Source: Leucobacter soli (GTDB lineage: Bacteria > Actinomycetota > Actinomycetes > Actinomycetales > Microbacteriaceae). Taken from it: 36,814 bases of DNA. A program made the translations under genes and the position numbers. The notes beneath the pieces were generated by a model. That model made no database searches, was not told where the DNA came from, and was given only the letters and a program-made list of their open reading frames with translations. The stretch is taken from assembly GCF_910593785.1 (NCBI RefSeq), contig NZ_CAJVAP010000030.1, positions 1-36,814 of the forward strand, given 5' to 3'. Of this stretch, positions 20,291 through 36,814 are shown piece after piece; position 1 is the stretch's first letter, and each line of letters begins with the position of its first letter.

Positions 20291-20363
20291 GGGTCCTTAA
20301 CTCAGTTGGTAGAGTGCCTGCTTTGCAAGCAGGATGTCGGGAGTTCGATTCTCCCAGGATCCA
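20291..20363 (+). tRNA. tRNA-Ala(TGC), prophage integration target
   Basis: The acceptor GGGTCCT pairs with AGGATCC. The anticodon stem CCTGC/GCAGG encloses TTTGCAA (anticodon TGC), and the T arm is GGGAG-TTCGATT-CTCCC. The gene stays intact because the prophage supplies an identical 3' part from base 20322 on. The repressor gene runs antisense through almost the whole tRNA. Confidence 0.97.
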
Positions 20364-20667
20364 CGTCAATACGATCCCCGTTCGGTCCCACCGGGCGGGG
20401 ATCTTCTGTTTCCCCGAGCAGGTAGCTCGACGTAGTGCGCAGCACAGTCGCGAGGTTCACTAGCTCGATCAGCGCCCACTTGCGCTCTCCGCGCAGCTTG
20501 CGCCCGAACGTTCCGGGATCGATCCCGATCGACTTTGCTACCGCGTCCTGCGTCAGATGCGCGTCCCAGATGCGCGTGAAAACGCGCTTGCCGACTGCAA
20601 CGTCGAGTGACTTATCCGGCGTGGACCGCTTCCGCGGGCGGCTCGATTCTGCTGCTGCTGTACTCAT
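20302..20667 (-). CDS. phage immunity repressor, lysogenic form, spanning attL
   Basis: This 121-residue XRE-type protein has a basic N-terminus and a helix-turn-helix at about residues 38-66 (LTQDAVAKSIGIDPGTFGRKL). After ATVLRTTSSYLLGE there is no further domain. Residues 102-115 are encoded by the attachment core and 116-121 (SRHSTN) by host tRNA-Ala antisense. In the re-joined phage (core continuing into 36286-36243) residues 116-129 would be TGHLAEVIPMRSAA, ending in an ssrA-like Ala-Ala. Integration therefore swaps an apparent degradation tail for a neutral one. The start at 20667 has AAGG upstream. Diverging from it is the Cro/Xis-like gene, with paired operators between them. Confidence 0.88.
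   Translation of the reverse strand: MSTAAAESSRPRKRSTPDKSLDVAVGKRVFTRIWDAHLTQDAVAKSIGIDPGTFGRKLRGERKWALIELVNLATVLRTTSSYLLGETEDPRPVGPNGDRIDVDPGRIELPTSCLQSRHSTN
20322..20364. repeat. attL, 43-bp attachment core
   Basis: The 43 bases from the anticodon loop to one base past the tRNA-Ala 3' end recur exactly at 36287-36329. Left of it the six bases AGTGCC are also shared (20313-20318), separated from the core by three bases of which two differ. Confidence 0.95.
20373..20403 (+). terminator. phage-supplied terminator after tRNA-Ala
   Basis: GATCCCCG (20373-20380) pairs with CGGGGATC (20396-20403). An inner CGGT/ACCG stem (20383-20393) makes it longer, and TTCTGTTT follows. It can stop host tRNA transcripts before they enter the prophage. 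It lies within the repressor coding sequence. The host's own hairpin was pushed to 36336. Confidence 0.6.
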
Positions 20668-20689: not shown

Positions 20690-20737
20690 GACATTTAAGC
20701 CATACCGGTCGAATGTGTCATGACTTGCTTAAATGTC
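20690..20737. promoter_or_regulatory. paired operators in the repressor/Cro-like intergenic region
   Basis: GACATTTAAGC at 20690-20700 and its exact reverse complement GCTTAAATGTC at 20727-20737 are 26 bp apart. The left copy lies in the probable repressor promoter (leftward -10-like TTTAGA near 20682-20687). The right copy lies between the -35 and -10 of the rightward promoter. These AT-rich words stand out in GC-rich DNA and are likely repressor and Cro binding sites. Confidence 0.7.
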
Positions 20738-20754: not shown

Positions 20755-20952
20755 ATGACAAACAAGCGAGATCCAGGCACAGTGCCAATCGCTCCGCGCG
20801 AGGCTGCAGCACTGCTCGGCATCTCAACGCGCACAGTCGCGCGCTGGGCCGACACCGGCAAGCTCCACCCTGTCACCCTGCCGAGCGGCCACCGCCGCTA
20901 CCGGCGTGCCGAGGTCGAGGCACTCGTGAAGCCAGTCGAGGTCCACCGATGA
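20755..20952 (+). CDS. MerR/excisionase-type HTH protein (Cro- and/or Xis-like)
   Basis: The 65-residue protein contains the winged helix-turn-helix of the excisionase/BldC group: APREAAALLGISTRTVARWA, then the wing GKLHPVTLPSGHRRYRR. Small proteins of this type act as recombination directionality factors or as DNA-binding regulators. Being first in the rightward early operon and divergent from the repressor, it could serve as Cro, Xis or both. The ATG at 20755 coincides with the predicted transcription start; ATGs at 20713 and 20743 are upstream but would lie within the promoter. Confidence 0.8.
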   Translation: MTNKRDPGTVPIAPREAAALLGISTRTVARWADTGKLHPVTLPSGHRRYRRAEVEALVKPVEVHR

Positions 20953-21828: not shown

Positions 21829-22710
21829 ATGACCACCACCCCGCAGATCATCCCCGACCGCCTCGAAGACCTCACCCTCGGCTTCATCGACCTCGACGCC
21901 GGCAACCACTCCAACTTCACCGACGGGCACTGCGCCATGGAGGTCGTCGCCTGGCTCGCAGGCGAAGGCCACACCGACGCCCCCGAATGCGCATCCCCCG
22001 TACTCCGCCGCTTCACCATCCGCTGCAACGACAACTGGGACGACAACCAGCGGCAGAAGCTCGCCCCCTACCTGCCCCGCATGGTCGGCACCGCCAACGA
22101 CGGCCACGACCCCGCCCGCTCCTTCCTCGCCCTCGACTGGCTCATCCGCGTCTACACCCCCACCTGGCTCGACCTCCGCCCCGAACTCACCACCCACGCC
22201 GAAGCCCTCCGCGCACTCCCCGAGATCCGCACCAACGCCGACACCGAAGCCGCCGCCGACACTGTGCGCGCTGCACAACAGGCAGCCTCCGCCGCTCGGG
22301 CTGCCGCCGGGGATGCCGCTCGGGATGCCGCCGGGGCTGCCGCCTGGGATGCCGCTCGGGCTGCCGCCTGGGATGCCGCTCGGGATGCCGCCGGGGCTGC
22401 CGCCGGGGATGCCGCTCGGGATGCCGCCGGGGCTGCCGCCTGGGATGCCGCTCGGGATGCCGCCTGGGATGCCGCCGGGGCTGCCGCTCGGGATGCCGCC
22501 TGGGATGCCGCTCGGGATGCCGCCGGGGCTGCCGCCGGGGATGCCGCCGGGGATGCCGCCTGGGATGCCGCCGGGGCTGCCGCTCGGGATGCCGCCTGGG
22601 ATGCCGCTCGGGATGCCGCCCGGACCGCGCTCGCGCCCACCGTCGAACAACTCCAGGCATCCGCACTCGAACTCCTCGACCGCATGATCCAGCCCGAGGC
22701 CGGCGCATGA
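21829..22710 (+). CDS. phage protein with a 27-unit Ala-rich tetrapeptide repeat
   Basis: This protein has 293 residues. The N-terminal 135 residues form a domain seen in many actinobacterial and phage proteins of unknown function; the hallmark is HCAMEVVAWLAGEGHTDAPE, then LAPYLPRMVGTAND and LALDWLIRVYTPTWL. From residue 157 to 264 come 27 tetrapeptides of the form (R/G/W)-(D/A)-A-A, predicted helical, and then a short helical tail. The array is encoded by a 12-bp tandem repeat (22297-22620) that could change in copy number. The stop overlaps the methyltransferase start (ATGA). Confidence 0.75.
   Translation: MTTTPQIIPDRLEDLTLGFIDLDAGNHSNFTDGHCAMEVVAWLAGEGHTDAPECASPVLRRFTIRCNDNWDDNQRQKLAPYLPRMVGTANDGHDPARSFLALDWLIRVYTPTWLDLRPELTTHAEALRALPEIRTNADTEAAADTVRAAQQAASAARAAAGDAARDAAGAAAWDAARAAAWDAARDAAGAAAGDAARDAAGAAAWDAARDAAWDAAGAAARDAAWDAARDAAGAAAGDAAGDAAWDAAGAAARDAAWDAARDAARTALAPTVEQLQASALELLDRMIQPEAGA
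22297..22620 (+). repeat. 27 tandem copies of a 12-bp coding repeat
   Basis: The unit is (C/G/T)GG-G(A/C)T-GCC-GC(T/C). The last base of a unit covaries with the first base of the next: GCT precedes CGG, and GCC precedes GGG or TGG, throughout the array. This keeps every unit to Arg/Gly/Trp, Asp/Ala, Ala, Ala. Because 12 is a multiple of three, gain or loss of units keeps the frame. Confidence 0.95.
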
Positions 22711-23411
22711 GGCCGATCCTGCTGGATCTGTTCTGCTGCGAGGGAGGCGCAGCGATGGGCTACTCCCAGGCCGGTTTCGACGTGCTCGGAGTGGACAAGG
22801 ATCCGCAGCCGCTCTACCCGTTCTGGTTCCATCAGGGAGACGTGCTCGACGTGCTCGACCGTCTCTGGGCAGGCCTCGGCGTCGAGTTCGTGCACCCGGA
22901 CGGCCGCCGGCGGATGCTGTTCGCCGAGCAGATCGCGGTGCGGCACGCGTCTCCGCCATGCCAAGCGCTCTCGACGATCACACCGGACAAATCGGAGCAC
23001 GTGAACCTGATCCCGGATGTCCGTGAGCGGCTGCAGCGATCGCCACGACCGTACGTGATCGAGAACGTCGAGGGCGCCCGATCGGAACTGGTTGCACCCG
23101 TCCGACTGTGCGGCTCGTCGTTCGGGCTTGCAGTGCGCCGGCACCGGCTGTTCGAGTCGTCGGTGCCGCTCGCTGCGCTGCCGTGCGACCACGCCGCGCA
23201 GGGAACACCAGTCGGCGTCTACGGAGCACTCCGGTCGAGGCATTGGGCGCGTCCGGGCGGGAGTTCGCGCGGACGAAAGGCCACCTCGCTCGAGGAAGCG
23301 CGTGAGGCGATGGGGATGCCGTGGGCGTCGTGGCATGGCTGCACGCAGGCGATCCCGCCGGCCATGACCGAATTCATCGGACGGCAACTGACGAAGGACG
23401 TACGCGCATGA
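22707..23411 (+). CDS. C5 DNA cytosine methyltransferase
   Basis: The 234-residue enzyme shows motif I as LDLFCCEGGAAMGYSQAGF, motif IV with the catalytic Cys as SPPCQALS, and motif VI as ENVEGAR, the order of C5-cytosine methyltransferases. The target-recognition part is short and the C-terminal motif X region is TEFIGRQL. It lacks a partner restriction enzyme, so it probably protects phage DNA or alters expression. It is translationally coupled to genes on both sides through ATGA overlaps. Confidence 0.88.
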   Translation: MRPILLDLFCCEGGAAMGYSQAGFDVLGVDKDPQPLYPFWFHQGDVLDVLDRLWAGLGVEFVHPDGRRRMLFAEQIAVRHASPPCQALSTITPDKSEHVNLIPDVRERLQRSPRPYVIENVEGARSELVAPVRLCGSSFGLAVRRHRLFESSVPLAALPCDHAAQGTPVGVYGALRSRHWARPGGSSRGRKATSLEEAREAMGMPWASWHGCTQAIPPAMTEFIGRQLTKDVRA

Positions 23412-23509: not shown

Positions 23510-23847
23510 GTCGGCACCATCGGGCGCAGCAGTGGTCGACGCACTCGCCGAAGCTGCGCGAGAAGCTGACCGCGATGATGCGCCGGTCAGGCGGTCAACT
23601 CCCGTGCGTCGAGTGCGGGAACCCGGTCGTGCTCGGCCTGCACAAGTGGCAGGTCGGGCATCGCCGGGATGCGGGCAAGGGTGGCAAGGCGACCCTCGCG
23701 AACGTCGGCCCCGTGCACTGCAAGTCGTTCGACCAGTCCGGCCGAACCGTGTGGCCGCGCAACTGCAACCAGATCGCGGGCGGCAAGGCCGGTGCGCGGG
23801 TCACGAATGGCCGTCGTCGAGCAGCGCAGGACATCCGGGCATGGTGA
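23506..23847 (+). CDS. HNH-type endonuclease-like protein
   Basis: The 113-residue basic protein has a zinc knuckle CVEC (about residues 34-37), the HKWQVGHRRDAGKGG segment with the HNH histidines, and GPVHCKSFDQ and RNCNQIAGGKAG later. HNH proteins beside terminase are common in siphophages and in some phages are needed for packaging. No small terminase is seen, so this gene occupies that slot. The stop lies 7 bp inside the terminase start. Confidence 0.75.
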   Translation: MSRHHRAQQWSTHSPKLREKLTAMMRRSGGQLPCVECGNPVVLGLHKWQVGHRRDAGKGGKATLANVGPVHCKSFDQSGRTVWPRNCNQIAGGKAGARVTNGRRRAAQDIRAW

Positions 23848-25589
23848 CCATGACCCCGACCGCCGCCGGCTCGACGGATCTCGTCGCCGATTCGTCGCCG
23901 TTTTTTGAGAGACCGGTCGAACCTCCGCATGGGGGCAGCACGGAATTCTCTCTCTACCTGTGGGATCTGGTGCGGGCGCGTGCGATCGCGCCGAAGTGGC
24001 ACGGACCGGCGTCGGAAGATGACGAGCTCCGGCTGGAGTTCCTGCGCGGTGCCCGGTCGATGGGGTACGAGCTCGTCGACCTCGACGACGCGGCGGAGCT
24101 TGCCCGGCTCGCGGCGATGAAGCCGCGCCGGTATCCGCTGCAACCGCAGCAGCTCCTCATCGCAGACCACCTGAACGCTGTCGATACTGACGGCGTATCC
24201 CTGGACGAGTACGTTGTGGAGATCCCGCGGCGAGCATCGAAGACGACGACGATCTTCTGTCTGCTCCACGGCCGTTGCCTCTCCAGGACGGACTACTTCG
24301 TGACGTTCTCCGCGCAGTCCGGCGTGAAGGGCGGGGCGCGGCTGCGCGAGTGGGCGACGCAGCTCGACCGGATCCAGCCGCCCGACGACGCCGACCTGCC
24401 GCCCTGGATGCGTGGCACCCGGCCGAAGCGTGCCCCGCAGGCGGTCGCCCTGTTCGGTCCCGACCAGCTCAGCGCGCCGGCCCCGGTCGGGCGCGGGTTC
24501 CGGATCATGCGCGGCGAGGTCGGGAAGGGGATCTACTACGACAACGGGTCCCGGTTCCTCGTGCTGAAGCCCGACGCCGAGTCGTACCGTGGCGAGGCCG
24601 GCGACGTGTCCTGGATCGACGAGGCGCAGGAGATCGACCCCGAGGAGGGCGCGGACCTCCTCGCCGGCATCATCCCGCTACAGGACACGCGCGAGGGTGC
24701 CGCGCTCATGGTGTCCGGCACCGCCGGCGAGGCCCGCATCGGGATCCTGTGGGAGCGCCTCGACCGGCTCCGCGCGGGCGACCCCGACATCGGCGGTGTC
24801 GACTACGCCGCCGCGGAGGATACCCCGTGGGAAGTGATCGAGGACGAAGAGCAAGCGATGCAGCTCCTCGCGTCCGTGCATCCCGGTATCGGGACGCTGA
24901 CGACGTTGGAAAAGATGCGGAAGAACTGGCGCAAGCTCCCCAAGCCGCAGTGGGCGCGCGAGTACCTGTCGATGTGGCCTGAGACGTACGGGCAGACCGC
25001 GGTGCCGGCGGACTGGTGGCAGCGGGCCGCGTTGCAGTCGAAGCCGCGCCGGCCCGGTCGTGTCGCGTTCGGGCTCGCGATCAAGCCTGGCGGGTCCGTG
25101 GCCGCGATCTGCGCGGCCTGGCGTACACCGGCCGGTGTCGCCTACGTCGAGGTCGTCGACCATCGGCCCGGCACGCTGTGGCTGCCGAAGCGGATGCAGG
25201 AACTCACGATGACCTACAAGGGTTCCACGATCGCGTTCGACAAGATAGGCGAGGCCGAGCAGACCGCGACCGAGGCGGCCGTGCTGAAGCCGAGGCCGGC
25301 GCTGCGCGTGCAGACGTACAACGAGAACGCGGCCGGCTGTATCCAGGTCCTCCGAGATCTCGACCGCGGCAACTTCCGCCACTCCGACCAGATCGGGCTG
25401 AGCGCCGCGGTCGAGATCGCCGCGAAACGTGAGGTGCGCGGCTCGGACCGGGGCGTGTGGCTGTGGACGCCGGCCGAGCGGGGCGGCGATATCACCTGCC
25501 TGGATGCGGCCACGCGGGCGCTCAGGAACTGGGACCAGCACTACGCCGGCCGCACCGGCGGCTACCGGCCCTCGAATGGAGACGACTGA
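23841..25589 (+). CDS. terminase large subunit
   Basis: The 582-residue DNA packaging motor has an N-terminal ATPase with an Arg-rich Walker A variant (EIPRRASKTTTI, about residues 130-141) and Walker B VSWIDEAQEI (about residues 257-266). The C-terminal nuclease domain starts near residue 410, with acidic residues in FDKIGEAE and DAATRALR. Length is typical. Translation may begin at 23841, at GTG 23844 or at ATG 23850. It is the first of the late structural genes. Confidence 0.9.
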   Translation: MVTMTPTAAGSTDLVADSSPFFERPVEPPHGGSTEFSLYLWDLVRARAIAPKWHGPASEDDELRLEFLRGARSMGYELVDLDDAAELARLAAMKPRRYPLQPQQLLIADHLNAVDTDGVSLDEYVVEIPRRASKTTTIFCLLHGRCLSRTDYFVTFSAQSGVKGGARLREWATQLDRIQPPDDADLPPWMRGTRPKRAPQAVALFGPDQLSAPAPVGRGFRIMRGEVGKGIYYDNGSRFLVLKPDAESYRGEAGDVSWIDEAQEIDPEEGADLLAGIIPLQDTREGAALMVSGTAGEARIGILWERLDRLRAGDPDIGGVDYAAAEDTPWEVIEDEEQAMQLLASVHPGIGTLTTLEKMRKNWRKLPKPQWAREYLSMWPETYGQTAVPADWWQRAALQSKPRRPGRVAFGLAIKPGGSVAAICAAWRTPAGVAYVEVVDHRPGTLWLPKRMQELTMTYKGSTIAFDKIGEAEQTATEAAVLKPRPALRVQTYNENAAGCIQVLRDLDRGNFRHSDQIGLSAAVEIAAKREVRGSDRGVWLWTPAERGGDITCLDAATRALRNWDQHYAGRTGGYRPSNGDD

Positions 25590-25861: not shown

Positions 25862-26899
25862 ATGGGAATCCTGGACCGGTTCGGCATCGGACGCGCAGCG
25901 AAGCTTCGCATCAACTCGCCCTACTCGGCCGGCACCACGCTCCCGCAGATGATCGTCACCGATCTCCTGAGCGAGGACCAGCGGGCGCAGCTCCCCATGA
26001 CCCGCGACATCGCGATCGAGATCCCGGCCGTGTCCAAGGCCCGCAACCTCCTCACGTCCGTGATCGCCGGGTTCCCCCTGCGCGCACTCTCCGGCGACAC
26101 GCTGACCAAGGAGCAGCCGCCGTTCCTGTACCGGTCGGACTCGATTGTGTCGCCCTACGAGCGGATGTTGTGGACCGTCGATGACGCGATATTCTACGGC
26201 GTCGCCCTGTGGAAGGTGACCCGCGGACAGCGCAGCGCCGAGGGTGCCCGCGGCCCGATCCTCGACGCCGAGTGGGTGCCGTTCGGGACCTGGTGGATCG
26301 AGGACGGCCGGATCGTGATCGACGGCGAGCCGGCCCGCAAAGACGACGTGATCCTGTTCAACTTCCCCTTCGAGGGGCTCCTGGGCGTCGGCCGCACCAC
26401 ACTGAGCGGTGCGCGCGCAATCGAAGCGGCATGGGTCGACCGTGCCAGCAACCCGGTCCCGGTGCTGGAGATGCACCTACTCGACGACACCATGACGCAG
26501 AAGGAAGTCGACGAGTGGGAGAAGGCGTGGGCGAAGAAGCGCCGCGCACCCGGCGGCGCGTTCGGCGTCACCCCGCCCGGCGTCGAGCTGAAGACACACG
26601 GCGAGCTGAAGCCCGAGCTGTACACCGAGGGCCGGAACTCGATCCGTACCGATGTCGGATCTCACCTGAACGTCCGCGCGTCGATGCTCGACGGCACCAC
26701 CGGCGTCGACTCCCTCACCTACACGACCAAGGACGGCGAGCGGAACCTGTTCTACGAACTCGACCTGCCGTTCTGGACCGGCACCATCGAGCACCGGCTC
26801 TCGATGGACGACGTGGTGCCGCGCGGCAGCCGCGTCCGCTTCGACAAGTACGAGCTGTACAACACCCCGACCCCGACCGGCCCGACCACGGAGGACTAA
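25862..26899 (+). CDS. phage portal protein
   Basis: The 345-residue protein has the beginning of HK97-type portals (MGILDRFGIG...) and the helical core with SKARNLLTSVIAGFPL. The region SNPVPVLEMHLLDD and the SLTYTTKDGERN stretch near the C-terminus are typical. It forms the ring at the packaging vertex. It is shorter than many portals (about 400-450), in keeping with this small genome. It is followed after 5 bp by the capsid fusion gene. Confidence 0.85.
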   Translation: MGILDRFGIGRAAKLRINSPYSAGTTLPQMIVTDLLSEDQRAQLPMTRDIAIEIPAVSKARNLLTSVIAGFPLRALSGDTLTKEQPPFLYRSDSIVSPYERMLWTVDDAIFYGVALWKVTRGQRSAEGARGPILDAEWVPFGTWWIEDGRIVIDGEPARKDDVILFNFPFEGLLGVGRTTLSGARAIEAAWVDRASNPVPVLEMHLLDDTMTQKEVDEWEKAWAKKRRAPGGAFGVTPPGVELKTHGELKPELYTEGRNSIRTDVGSHLNVRASMLDGTTGVDSLTYTTKDGERNLFYELDLPFWTGTIEHRLSMDDVVPRGSRVRFDKYELYNTPTPTGPTTED

Positions 26900-35007: not shown

Positions 35008-35186
35008 ACTACACGCCCGCGCAGCTCGCGCGCTTCATCGCCTACATCGCCGCCGTGCTCGCCGGCCTGTTCCTGATCGGGCTCGGCGCGCTCCGCTCGG
35101 ACGCCCACCTGATCGGGCTCGGGATCCCGCTACTCGGGTACGCGCTCCCCGCCGCCAACGTTAAGGACAGCAGCGACACCGACTAG
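35004..35186 (+). CDS. holin-like membrane protein 2
   Basis: The 60-residue protein has two hydrophobic segments (FIAYIAAVLAGLFLIGLGAL and LIGLGIPLLGYAL) and an acidic end (KDSSDTD). It fits a small two-span holin. Its stop codon TAG shares bases with the integrase stop on the other strand (35183-35186 reads CTAG). Confidence 0.65.
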   Translation: MNYTPAQLARFIAYIAAVLAGLFLIGLGALRSDAHLIGLGIPLLGYALPAANVKDSSDTD

Positions 35187-36070
35187 GCCGCTAGGCGTAA
35201 CGTCGGGAGTGCTTCGACCCCGTCCCGCTTCCGACGCTCTGACACCGCCGTGTAGATCTCGGTCGATTGGATCGTCTCGTGTAGCAGGATCTCCTGGATC
35301 ACGCGGAGATCGACCCCGGCCTCGCCGAGTTCGGTCCCGCACGAGTGCCGCAGTGAGTGCGGCGTCAGCTTCGGGTCCGTGATCCCCGCGCGCCGTTTCG
35401 CCTTGCTGATGATGTCCGTCACCGAGGCCCCTTGGATTGGCGTGTCGGATCCGTCGCGTGCGGGGAACCACCAGCCAACGCGCGGCATGTCGAGCGCGAG
35501 TTCGGCGATCACCGGATGCAGCGGCACCCACCGCACCTTGTCGCCCTTCGCGACCGTGCGCAGCCGACCCGACAAGAGATCTACGTCATCGCCCCGCACG
35601 CGCGCGATCTGGGACACCCGAAACCCTTGGTAGTAGCCGAGGAGGATCATCGCGCGTGTACGCCGCCTGACCCCGGACGAGAGCAACGCTTCAATCTGCG
35701 CGACCGAGAACGGCCGCGCGACGTTCTTCGGCACCCGCACCGGTTTGAGCGCCGCAGACGGATCGACTGTCAGGTAGCCGTCCTCGACCGCGAACCGGTA
35801 GAACGCTTGGAGCGCGCCGCGCTCGGTGCGGATCGTGCCGGGCTCGACGCCCTCGCGCGCGAGATCCGCGCGGAGATCCTGCGTGGTCGCCTGGAGCAGC
35901 GGGAGGCTCGCGCGCCGGGAGAACCCGTCGAGCAGGTGGCGGCGATTCTTGATCGTGGTGAGGGCGAGACGTTGGGAGCGCTGATAGATCGCGAAGGCGT
36001 CGAGAATGGCGTCGTTCATGTCCGCAGCGTGCCAGCGGAACTGGGCACGCTCGACGGCCGACACGCTCAC
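35183..36070 (-). CDS. int: tyrosine integrase with ssrA-like C-terminus
   Basis: The recombinase has an N-terminal SAM-like domain (AIYQRSQRLALTTIKNRRHLL) and a catalytic domain. Active-site residues are Arg in GFRVSQIARV, Lys in TVAKGDKVRWVPL, His and Arg in TPHSLRHS, His in LLHETIQS, and the nucleophile Tyr in TEIYTAV. It inserts the phage into tRNA-Ala. The last residues are PTLRLAA, an LAA end like ssrA tags, suggesting rapid breakdown. Start GTG at 36070 overlaps the previous stop (GTGA) and gives 295 residues; ATG at 36019 would give 278. In the circular phage it would be third in a repressor operon. Confidence 0.92.
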   Translation of the reverse strand: MSVSAVERAQFRWHAADMNDAILDAFAIYQRSQRLALTTIKNRRHLLDGFSRRASLPLLQATTQDLRADLAREGVEPGTIRTERGALQAFYRFAVEDGYLTVDPSAALKPVRVPKNVARPFSVAQIEALLSSGVRRRTRAMILLGYYQGFRVSQIARVRGDDVDLLSGRLRTVAKGDKVRWVPLHPVIAELALDMPRVGWWFPARDGSDTPIQGASVTDIISKAKRRAGITDPKLTPHSLRHSCGTELGEAGVDLRVIQEILLHETIQSTEIYTAVSERRKRDGVEALPTLRLAA

Positions 36071-36246
36071 TCGCCGCCGCGCTCCCATGCGTCCGCTGTG
36101 CAGCCCTCGCAGAAGTCGTGCCCTCGCTCGTGCACCCAGCCTTCGATCTTTGCCCGACGCCTGGCCTCTGAGACGTACCAGAATGAATCCTCCTGCCGGT
36201 CGAGGCAGTGATCGCAAACGAGATAGATCTCCTTGGTGACGCTCAC
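36067..36246 (-). CDS. 59-residue zinc-ribbon protein between repressor and integrase
   Basis: Two Cys pairs, CDHC (about residues 11-14) and CEGC (about 46-49), make a likely zinc ribbon; between them is YVSEARRRAKIEGWVHERGH. The start is a GTG at 36246 with AGGAG six bases upstream. In the re-joined phage this GTG overlaps the repressor stop (GTGA), and its own stop overlaps the integrase start in the same way. So repressor, zinc ribbon and integrase would be one coupled unit. In the lysogen it loses that promoter. Function unknown; a helper of integration, excision or repression is possible. Confidence 0.7.
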   Translation of the reverse strand: MSVTKEIYLVCDHCLDRQEDSFWYVSEARRRAKIEGWVHERGHDFCEGCTADAWERGGE

Positions 36247-36286
36247 GCTGCACTCCTCATCGGAATGACTTCGGCCAAGTGCCCGG
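36243..36286 (-). other. detached 3' end of the viral repressor gene at attR
   Basis: Read leftward in the repressor frame, these bases plus the last core base encode TGHLAEVIPMRSAA and a TGA stop. They are separated from the rest of the repressor by integration and rejoin it on excision. The AGGAG for the zinc-ribbon gene is embedded in the codons for the MRS residues. Confidence 0.85.
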
Positions 36287-36329
36287 TTTGCAAGCAGGAT
36301 GTCGGGAGTTCGATTCTCCCAGGATCCAC
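36287..36329. repeat. attR, 43-bp attachment core
   Basis: This is an exact copy of 20322-20364: the 3' half of the original host tRNA-Ala, cut off by the insertion. It lacks the acceptor 5' strand and D arm and is not a working tRNA. Confidence 0.95.
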
Positions 36330-36335
36330 CCACGG

Positions 36336-36367
36336 AAAGCCTCCAACTCTTGAAAGGTGGGGGCTTT
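36336..36367 (+). terminator. original host terminator of the tRNA-Ala transcript
   Basis: AAAGCCTCCA (36336-36345) pairs with TGGGGGCTTT (36358-36367) with one G-U pair and a 12-nt loop. It begins seven bases after attR, the normal spot for the tRNA terminator before the phage came in. Confidence 0.65.
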
Positions 36368-36814
36368 CGGCCTGTGCGGGGTATGGTCTCGGTTGTTAAG
36401 GATGCCGACTGCGCACGGCCCGTTGACAGTGCCGATTGAGGCGGGGAACTGCAGCGGGGGTTCGAGCGGATGAGCGCTCTAAACCCCGCATTGTTACTAC
36501 ATATCGCGACAGTGCTTGCAGAGCGGCCAACCGGTGGTCCCAGATCGTCGGTTGTAAGCCGGGATCTGTTGGCCGCTCGGGCAGTTGTCGTGGACGTGAT
36601 GGACATCCGGGTCGGTGGGGTTGATCGAATGGTAGGCGGCTACTCGCAAGGAAGACTCCTTTGTCTCGGTGTGGATGTGTCGGATGACACACTCTCAAGG
36701 GTAGGGACTACCACTGACGTTGATACTGATAAGTACCTCGTTCGGGTCTGACTCAGCCACTGACTGGCTTCGTGCCTTTGCAATGATCCGTCGACTCGGG
36801 CGAGGTATTACAGG
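36368..36814. other. chromosomal flank without a clear gene
   Basis: Right of the prophage I see no protein that I can support. The base composition is less GC-rich than in the core genes. An open frame of 93 codons from 36470 has no recognisable family and no good ribosome site. A long hairpin at 36521-36578 has a 10-bp perfect outer stem (GAGCGGCCAA with TTGGCCGCTC), an inner CAGATC/GATCTG stem and a small CGG/CCG tip; it could be part of a structured RNA or a regulatory element. Confidence 0.4.

What the first reader, a model, noticed from the sequence alone, without database searches (positions are those of the whole stretch)
20302..20667. Integration-dependent immunity switch: attP lies inside the repressor gene and integration swaps its C-terminus
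Seen: the repressor frame crosses attL and stops inside antisense tRNA-Ala, giving a 121-residue protein ending SRHSTN. Joining attL-right to attR-left through the 43-bp core keeps the frame open to 36243 and gives a 129-residue protein ending TGHLAEVIPMRSAA. Known: in mycobacteriophages such as BPs and Brujita, attP lies inside the repressor gene and the viral form carries an ssrA-like degron removed by integration. Inference: the same logic works here, with the free phage making an unstable repressor and the lysogen a stable one. Differences are that the host tRNA gene supplies a new tail and stop, and that the phage is a minimal siphovirus in a different actinobacterial family.
Basis: partly seen in the sequence, partly recalled or inferred. 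Interest (0 to 1): 0.95.

Follow-up and report, generated by a model that had tools for sequence, protein, structure and literature searches.

The report
Phage repressor re-tailed by chromosomal integration
A 16-kb bacterial prophage carries its insertion site inside its own repressor gene, so inserting into the host chromosome swaps the end of the repressor protein, which likely turns a short-lived repressor into a lasting one; this kind of switch is already known from related phages, but here the same gene also contains a hairpin predicted to end transcription of the host tRNA gene that the phage inserts into.

Summary
Confirmed: the 43-bp core (20322-20364 = 36287-36329) lies inside the repressor frame. 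The prophage form ends CLQSRHSTN (121 aa); the form joined through attP ends CLQTGHLAEVIPMRSAA (129 aa). Int ends LRLAA. The host is a Leucobacter. The mechanism is integration-dependent immunity, already described for mycobacteriophages, minimal Gordonia phages and minimal Bifidobacterium prophages. Two additions: (1) just past the tRNA, inside the repressor gene, lies a near-perfect hairpin with a T-rich tract on the tRNA strand (11 of 14 prophages, 5 of 5 minimal Gordonia phages with an integrase, 2 of 379 other ORF ends), a likely replacement terminator for the tRNA; (2) DNA-binding domains and viral tails appear to be shuffled independently. Protein stability and termination are untested.

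The parts
20302..20667 (-). repressor gene, prophage form, 121 aa, XRE/BetR-like HTH
   Evidence: phrog_2328 'transcriptional repressor' E 6.8e-08; BetR 21.0 bits, just under the Pfam cut-off of 21.6
20291..20364 (+). host tRNA-Ala(TGC), intact at attL
   Evidence: ARAGORN
20322..20364 (+). attL copy of the 43-bp core, inside the repressor frame
36287..36329 (+). attR copy of the 43-bp core
20302..20321 (-). host tRNA antisense DNA that ends the prophage form (SRHSTN, stop; the first S codon shares one base with the core)
36243..36286 (-). viral tail and stop of the repressor (TGHLAEVIPMRSAA)
   Evidence: join
36067..36246 (-). 59-aa ORF between viral repressor and int; GTGA overlaps at both ends; no Pfam hit
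35183..36070 (-). tyrosine integrase, 295 aa, ends ALPTLRLAA
   Evidence: Phage_integrase 94 bits
20755..20952 (+). divergent MerR/HTH_17-type small protein (65 aa), Cro-like or excisionase-like
   Evidence: HTH_17 E 1.2e-11
20690..20737 (.). perfect 11-bp inverted repeat GACATTTAAGC in the 87-bp rep/HTH intergenic region, operator candidate; only 2 places in the window at up to 1 mismatch (0.09 expected)
20373..20413 (+). 14-bp hairpin (3-nt loop) followed by TTCTGTTTCC on the tRNA strand, inside the repressor gene, starting 9 nt past the tRNA; predicted terminator
   Evidence: z -4.55
36335..36368 (+). hairpin (13 of 14 pairs, poor T tract) that followed tRNA-Ala before integration, now at attR
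   Evidence: score 18.2
23532..25589 (+). terminase large subunit of the prophage
   Evidence: phrog_9 E 6.2e-27
25862..26899 (+). portal protein
   Evidence: phrog_12 E 4.8e-10

Best explanation
In this 15,965-bp Leucobacter prophage the attachment core lies inside the repressor gene, so integration exchanges the viral C-terminal tail (HLAEVIPMRSAA) for one read from the antisense strand of host tRNA-Ala (SRHSTN), which likely converts a rapidly degraded repressor into a stable one that holds lysogeny. Shown by sequence: the two C-termini, intact tRNA-Ala at attL, the overlapping rep-orf59-int starts and stops in the joined form, and the LAA end of int. Inferred: rep and int are co-expressed in the free phage; a ClpXP-type protease that reads A/S-terminal tails keeps both low; an integrase molecule that escapes makes the prophage, which at one stroke removes the degron from the repressor and cuts int off from the repressor's expression signals. 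Also inferred: the hairpin inside the repressor gene ends transcription of the tRNA operon in the lysogen, replacing the host terminator that integration moved 16 kb away, and keeps antisense transcription out of the repressor gene.
For: Window anatomy. 14 prophages reconstructed from 32 integrase loci, each with a repressor frame through the core; int ends AA in 14 of 14. Rep-frame tails end in [ASTG][ASG] in 9 of 14 against 1 of 27 in the other two frames of the same joins (that class was chosen after seeing the tails); 0 of the 14 prophage-form tails end so. Natural homologues (120 listed of 224, all 120 classified with core peptides I wrote by hand): 71 viral-type, last residue A or S in 66, AA in 32; 29 prophage-type, none ending in A or S; 20 unclassified. 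P0004 (84% identical over 96%) ends CLQTERFAEVIPLHIHRAA without any joining. IMG/VR contig L066 holds rep (ending PVTPINRKAA) directly upstream of int; int ends AA in 16 of the 19 IMG/VR loci. Host tmRNA tag is ANAKRTDFALAA. The BPs system works this way by experiment (PMC4557955, abstract and passages).
Against: No stability, immunity or transcription was measured. 5 of 14 reconstructed viral tails do not end in small residues: G016, G050, G040 end AR, G015 SV, G276 RV. Integrases ending in AA also occur in 9 of the 18 loci where I could not reconstruct such an arrangement, so AA on int is not diagnostic alone. Exact host flanks of the empty site are not conserved across species; outside the window's own genome the matches are mostly the tRNA itself, a few running some 14-40 nt past it.
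Confidence: 0.85

Rival explanations
1. The prophage-form end is a mere consequence of attP lying next to the repressor; the frame crossing has no regulatory role, and the repressor works alike in both forms.
For: RIELPTSC-type peptides arise whenever a frame reads antisense through this tRNA; the open frame after the core is short; 5 of 14 viral tails lack a small-small end.
Against: Natural viral-type tails end in A or S in 66 of 71; 31 of 64 distinct tails against 5 of 454 other ORF ends carry [LVFM][AP]x[VIL]x(1-3)[PD][LIVM] (pattern made after seeing the tails); in 14 tails third codon positions differ about twice as often as the others (0.575 against 0.321 and 0.260).
Confidence: 0.08
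2. The prophage is a defective remnant and the cassette no longer switches.
For: 16 kb is small; several of the ORFs scanned have no PHROG or Pfam match.
Against: Terminase, portal, integrase, repressor and HTH genes are open, and size and gene order match isolated 15.9-17.6 kb phages such as GMA5, Coeur, EricDab and SallySpecial; the core copies are identical.
Confidence: 0.07
3. The hairpin in the repressor gene is a DNA-binding site (Int or excisionase) rather than a terminator.
For: It starts 3-23 nt from the core in the 11 prophages that have it, where accessory sites of attP may lie.
Against: Its sequence changes between relatives while the pairing is kept (each was picked as the best hairpin, so pairing is partly built in); a T-rich tract of 5-7 T in 10 follows on the tRNA strand in 11 of 11, more than on the other strand (my score rewards T, so this too is partly built in).
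Confidence: 0.2

Closest known systems
Mycobacteriophage BPs integration-dependent immunity (gp33, 136 to 103 aa)
   Same: attP in the 3' part of rep, rep and int on one strand in viral order, tRNA attB, viral form with an ssrA-like end, int with such an end, divergent HTH gene (PMC4557955, PMC9262239, passages)
   Different: Here the prophage form gains six residues from host DNA before its stop (BPs stops at the base next to the core); a 59-aa ORF lies between rep and int; a terminator-like hairpin is present. The BPs record could not be fetched, so its gene was not checked for one.
Gordonia minimal phages of the cluster CW kind (GMA5, Coeur, EricDab, SallySpecial, Rahul; only GMA5 is named as CW in the passages I saw, the rest are grouped by size and gene order)
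   Same: 15.9-17.6 kb, same gene order where I saw the table, Rep ends in AA in 5 of 5, hairpin with T-rich tract beside the core in 5 of 5; GMA5 has an extra ORF between rep and int. A sixth, Schiebs, has no integrase and was left out.
   Different: Host family and tRNA target; the extra ORF of GMA5 does not look like the 59-aa one (by eye, not compared by a tool); GMA5 int ends IVA, not AA; TerL of the window about 27% identical to that of GMA5 over 64%
Bifidobacterium prophages Bb423phi2 and 689b-1
   Same: Minimal prophage, rep and int at opposite ends, viral form gains 18 residues with an ssrA-like tag by in-silico joining (PMC6109161, passages)
   Different: tRNA-Met site, different host family; not compared by sequence here
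Arthrobacter cluster AN phages (Maggie, Azathoth)
   Same: Small genome, related HTH protein (35-41% identity) and TerL
   Different: No integrase, so no attP in the gene; seemingly lytic (PMC5513430, PMC5559632, passages)

Membership tests
Integration-dependent immunity (BPs/Brujita type) | attP core inside the repressor frame | tested here: met
Integration-dependent immunity (BPs/Brujita type) | rep and int co-directional and close together in the viral form | tested here: met
   join (one 59-aa ORF between them, as in GMA5); natural example L066. Co-transcription itself not tested
Integration-dependent immunity (BPs/Brujita type) | viral repressor ends in an ssrA-like tag (AA or similar) | tested here: met
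   RSAA; relatives mixed (9 of 14 small-small, 4 of 14 AA)
Integration-dependent immunity (BPs/Brujita type) | integrase ends in an ssrA-like tag | tested here: met
   LRLAA
Integration-dependent immunity (BPs/Brujita type) | attB overlaps a tRNA gene that is restored at attL | tested here: met
Integration-dependent immunity (BPs/Brujita type) | integrase without arm-binding domain | tested here: inconclusive
   Only the catalytic domain and a sub-threshold SAM-like domain were found in 295 aa
Integration-dependent immunity (BPs/Brujita type) | no recombination directionality factor | tested here: inconclusive
   The 65-aa MerR-type protein could be Cro-like or an excisionase
Integration-dependent immunity (BPs/Brujita type) | viral form degraded, prophage form stable and immune | not testable with these tools
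   needs half-life and immunity assays
Intrinsic (rho-independent) terminator for tRNA-Ala | GC-rich stem-loop followed by a T-rich tract, downstream on the tRNA strand | tested here: met
   found once; such patterns are common, 0.7 expected in shuffles of the region; 0 of 60 shuffles reach its score; 0 of 200 fold as well
Intrinsic (rho-independent) terminator for tRNA-Ala | tRNA transcripts end there | not testable with these tools
   needs 3'-end mapping

The most novel reading that the evidence does not exclude
The repressor gene is a composite with four stacked jobs: an exchangeable DNA-binding domain that sets immunity, a linker that is also a transcription terminator for the host tRNA gene, the antisense 3' half of that tRNA as recombination core, and a degron tail that belongs to the integrase module. 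Integration cuts between the last two, and because the terminator-core-tail stretch is shared, phages swap immunity domains at this joint while keeping their integration module.
Probability: 0.5. Interest if true: 0.65.

Novelty: new variant of a known kind. Interest (0 to 1): 0.5.

Why it matters
It places integration-dependent immunity in Microbacteriaceae and gives many natural pairs of viral-form and prophage-form repressors. A search for the term with repressor, attP and Microbacterium listed four papers; the passages I saw of three of them do not describe it in that family, the fourth (PMC7194413) I saw only as a listing. It points to a feature not mentioned in the 19 held papers that use the term 'integration-dependent immunity': the repressor gene carries a likely terminator for the very tRNA gene the phage invades, which would explain how such phages avoid antisense transcription through their repressor and keep the tRNA operon ended. 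It also gives a simple route by which immunity types could be exchanged, and a clade (tRNA-Thr, tails ending AR) where the standard AA degron account needs testing.

Tried and rejected
Rejected or weakened: a shared bipartite tag on int and rep. The rep motif is in 0 of 20 distinct int tails; a looser pattern, written after looking, hits 5 of 20 int, 18 of 64 rep and 4 of 454 other ends, and I leave it as a lead. AA ends as a universal rule of viral repressors: not met in the tRNA-Thr clade. The tail motif as a Microbacteriaceae feature: Babsiella (ADVIPLRP) and Fishburne (APVIPLRQ) have it too. The hairpin as a feature of all such systems: below the score of 23 in 3 of 14 prophages (G032C11, G287, G434, all tRNA-Val) and in 6 of 7 larger phages (Charlie, Babsiella, Obliviate, Rem711, Bunker, Dogfish; Fishburne scores 26.8 with 4 T in 10); of two cluster AN phages without integrase one (Kels, 26.9, 2 T in 10) reaches it; of 15 IMG/VR repressor loci scored (17 looked at; many tRNA-Val or cut at the contig end) two (L112, L155) reach it; L066 scores 11.8. 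On the sense side 4 of 385 ORF ends reach 23. An exact DNA pattern of core plus hairpin found nothing in viral contigs. The first scans of the divergent gene used the wrong frame and were redone. An AlphaFold job for the repressor never finished and is not used. 18 of 32 integrase loci gave no reconstructed tail-swapped repressor: two had a repeat with no repressor frame by eye (G342, G241), one showed only the int side (G006, tail ending VNAR), and in fifteen I found no core. For six of the fifteen (G011, G005, G239, G206, G252, G142) I held only 5-30 kb, so absence there proves little; G239 showed a 28-bp repeat beside a tRNA-Ser gene that I did not follow. G118 was not fetched because it lies at a contig end. 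Of the five named loci, three are G026, G032 and G047 again; L064 and L065 (the G206 contig) were read on the int side only.

Full report
What is there. The window is contig C30 of a 2.87-Mb genome. A 15,965-bp prophage lies between two exact 43-bp copies of the 3' part of tRNA-Ala(TGC). The tRNA is intact at the left end. A leftward HTH gene (repressor) starts inside the prophage, crosses the left core and stops inside antisense tRNA: 121 aa, ending CLQSRHSTN. At the right end, leftward, lie a 59-aa ORF and a 295-aa tyrosine integrase ending ALPTLRLAA. Joining the two inner flanks through the core gives a 129-aa repressor ending CLQTGHLAEVIPMRSAA, whose stop overlaps the GTG of the 59-aa ORF, whose stop overlaps the GTG of int. 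Thus rep, orf59 and int would be one coupled unit in the free phage, and integration splits it. Between rep and a divergent 65-aa MerR-type gene (20755-20952) lie 87 bp with a perfect 11-bp inverted repeat, an operator candidate.

Is it more than chance. In the genus, 15 of 54 genomes gave 19 integrase matches; I fetched all 18 besides the window. In the family (398 genomes drawn), 8 further matches of one integrase alignment and 5 of 6 new matches of another were fetched. Of these 32 loci, 14 could be reconstructed at both ends with a repressor frame running through the core: window, G047C1, G026C8 (tRNA-Ala); G032C11, G018C1a, G287, G434 (tRNA-Val); G015, G016, G050, G040, G018C1c, G184, G276 (tRNA-Thr). 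G342 and G241 had a repeat without a repressor frame (by eye); G006 was cut off and shows only the int side; in 15 I found no core, six of them held over 5-30 kb only. In the 14, integrases end in AA 14 times; in the other 18, nine times (for G241 the ORF read may not be int). Viral repressor ends, in the order listed above: SAA, GAA, VSA, RTA, AAA, RAS, RAG, VSV, VAR, NAR, VAR, TAS, AAA, GRV. Strictly AA: 4 of 14; [ASTG][ASG]: 9 of 14, against 1 of 27 in the other two frames of the same joins (one frame left out because it is int itself; class defined after the fact). Prophage ends: SRHSTN, SRRSTN, TSTV, YE, YEGTALPLS, QLS. These phages are related, so none of these counts is of independent events.

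Natural viral forms. A profile search with six repressors gave 224 proteins, 120 listed, all 120 read. Using core peptides that I wrote out by hand, 71 extend at least 9 residues past the core (viral-type), 29 end at or just after it (prophage-type), 20 were not classified. Of the 71, 66 end in A or S and 32 in AA; of the 29, none ends in A or S. All 16 viral forms with the tRNA-Ala core carry [LF]A[EPL]V[IT]P and end AA (15) or AS (1). P0004 is 84% identical to the window's repressor and is such a viral form. Among 64 distinct tails 26 end AA against 22 of 454 other ORF ends, and 60 end in A or S against 119 of 454. So the joined form is not an artefact of my joining. Babsiella and Fishburne viral tails carry the same AxVIPLR piece, so it is not confined to these hosts; its role is unknown. 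A looser pattern, [LVFM]Ax[VI], is in 54 of the 71.

The exception. In tRNA-Thr prophages of this genus the viral tails end AR (G016, G050, G040, and G006 on its int side; natural P0129 and P0130), SV (G015) or AS (G018C1c), while their integrases end LAA. Outside the genus the tRNA-Thr forms G184 and the free contig L112 end AA, and G276 ends RV. Either a different degron is read in the AR forms, or the repressor of these phages is not controlled by degradation.

The hairpin. Starting 9 nt past the tRNA, inside the repressor gene, the tRNA strand reads a 14-bp stem with 3-nt loop followed by TTCTGTTTCC (20373-20413; a pattern scan alone would find 0.7 such sites by chance in the region). The 60-nt piece folds at -30.8 kcal/mol, z -4.55, 0 of 200 shuffles as good. 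With one scoring rule of mine (stem, GC, T tract), 11 of 14 prophages score 23 or more, the hairpin starting 3-23 nt past the core; each of the 11 beats all of its 60 mononucleotide shuffles. Of 385 ORF ends in 12 of the loci, 8 reach 23 on the antisense side, and 6 of these are this very site in six of the prophages, leaving 2 of 379. The stems differ in sequence; in 17 hairpins, chosen as best hairpins so that pairing is expected, 206 of 209 stem positions pair. The T tract is richer on the tRNA strand in 11 of 11 (5-7 T in 10 against 0-4), partly built into the score. Five of five minimal Gordonia phages with an integrase have it. By the same score the host flank that followed the tRNA before integration holds a hairpin of 25 or more in G047C1, G026C8, G015, G016 and, 50 nt on, G018C1a; in the window it scores 18.2 (13 of 14 pairs, poor T tract). 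These now lie 15-17 kb from the tRNA. The simplest reading is that the phage brings its own tRNA terminator, hidden in its repressor gene and oriented so as not to stop the repressor's own transcript. The codons for the linker (ETEDPRPVGPNGD here) are then set in part by RNA structure. Against a tidy story: the three prophages without it (G032C11, G287, G434, tRNA-Val) have no strong hairpin in the host flank, but G040, G184, G276 and G018C1c have the phage hairpin with none of 23 or more in the host flank, and the G050 host flank is itself another such prophage. None of the 19 held papers that use 'integration-dependent immunity' mentions a transcription terminator: the one that holds the word means a tail terminator. 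Searches listed 14 and 9 papers on phages, tRNA genes and terminators, of which I saw passages of one (PMC8022706) and only listings of the rest, so a description elsewhere is not excluded; two searches listed none.

Shuffling. Over 2485 pairs of the 71 viral-type proteins, N-domain identity and tail identity are not positively correlated (Spearman -0.11; pairs are not independent). P0004 and P0023 share an identical 16-residue tail with N-domains 36% identical; P0004 and P0005 share N-domains at 91% with tails at 44%. Window and G047C1 are 56% identical in HTH DNA (window and G040, from different clades, align at 54% by the same method), 86% in the linker, 100% in the core and 75% in the tail; G050 and G018C1c show the reverse, 79% in HTH and 57% in the tail. 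The joint therefore probably lies at the linker or core; other pairs are less clear.

Known or new. The core mechanism is established by experiment in BPs (PMC4557955; review PMC9262239; passages read) and predicted for Gordonia and Bifidobacterium minimal phages (PMC5559632, PMC6109161; passages read). A Streptomyces phage is also proposed to have it, by synteny (PMC12243558, passages). I did not read Broussard 2013 itself. By the defining features that gave a result (five met, none failed, two inconclusive, one not testable here) the system is of that kind; the embedded terminator-like hairpin and the domain shuffling make it a variant worth testing. That ClpX reads C-terminal AA and that variants such as ASV or DAS change degradation rates is recalled, not taken from a call.

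Noticed in passing
window 22291-22620: Array of 12-bp units (27 copies in register; 24-bp period, 13.8 copies) inside a prophage reading frame, coding a four-residue repeat; no function assigned.
   Followed up: partly
window 22707-23411, plus strand: Frame reading MRPILLDLFCCEGGAAMGYSQAGFDVLGVD, which looks (recalled motif) like a small C5 cytosine methyltransferase of the prophage.
   Followed up: no
L039 (G050), right of attR: The sequence to the right of the attR core reads like the linker of another repressor of the same type with its own hairpin, which suggests two such prophages in tandem at one tRNA-Thr gene.
   Followed up: partly
L028 (G047C4), L031 (G039), L032 (G011): Related integrases lie beside a tRNA-Arg(TCT) gene on the prophage side, as in Arthrobacter phages Elesar and Nandita; possibly the tRNA-dependent lysogeny type (PMC10865867, seen in a listing only).
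   Followed up: no
L117 (G184): Only 8.2 kb between the two cores, with viral-form repressor ending YGAAA and integrase ending TLAA: a very short element or remnant.
   Followed up: no
L112 (IMG/VR contig of 15,901 bp): Apparently free minimal phage with repressor (ending TRKAA) upstream of an integrase ending RRAA, and a hairpin beside the core.
   Followed up: partly
L069, L081, L077, L064: Tails read from the int side end VS, AS, AS, AS (LRSVS, LRDAS, ARAS, LRDAS): serine-ended variants of the tag.
   Followed up: no
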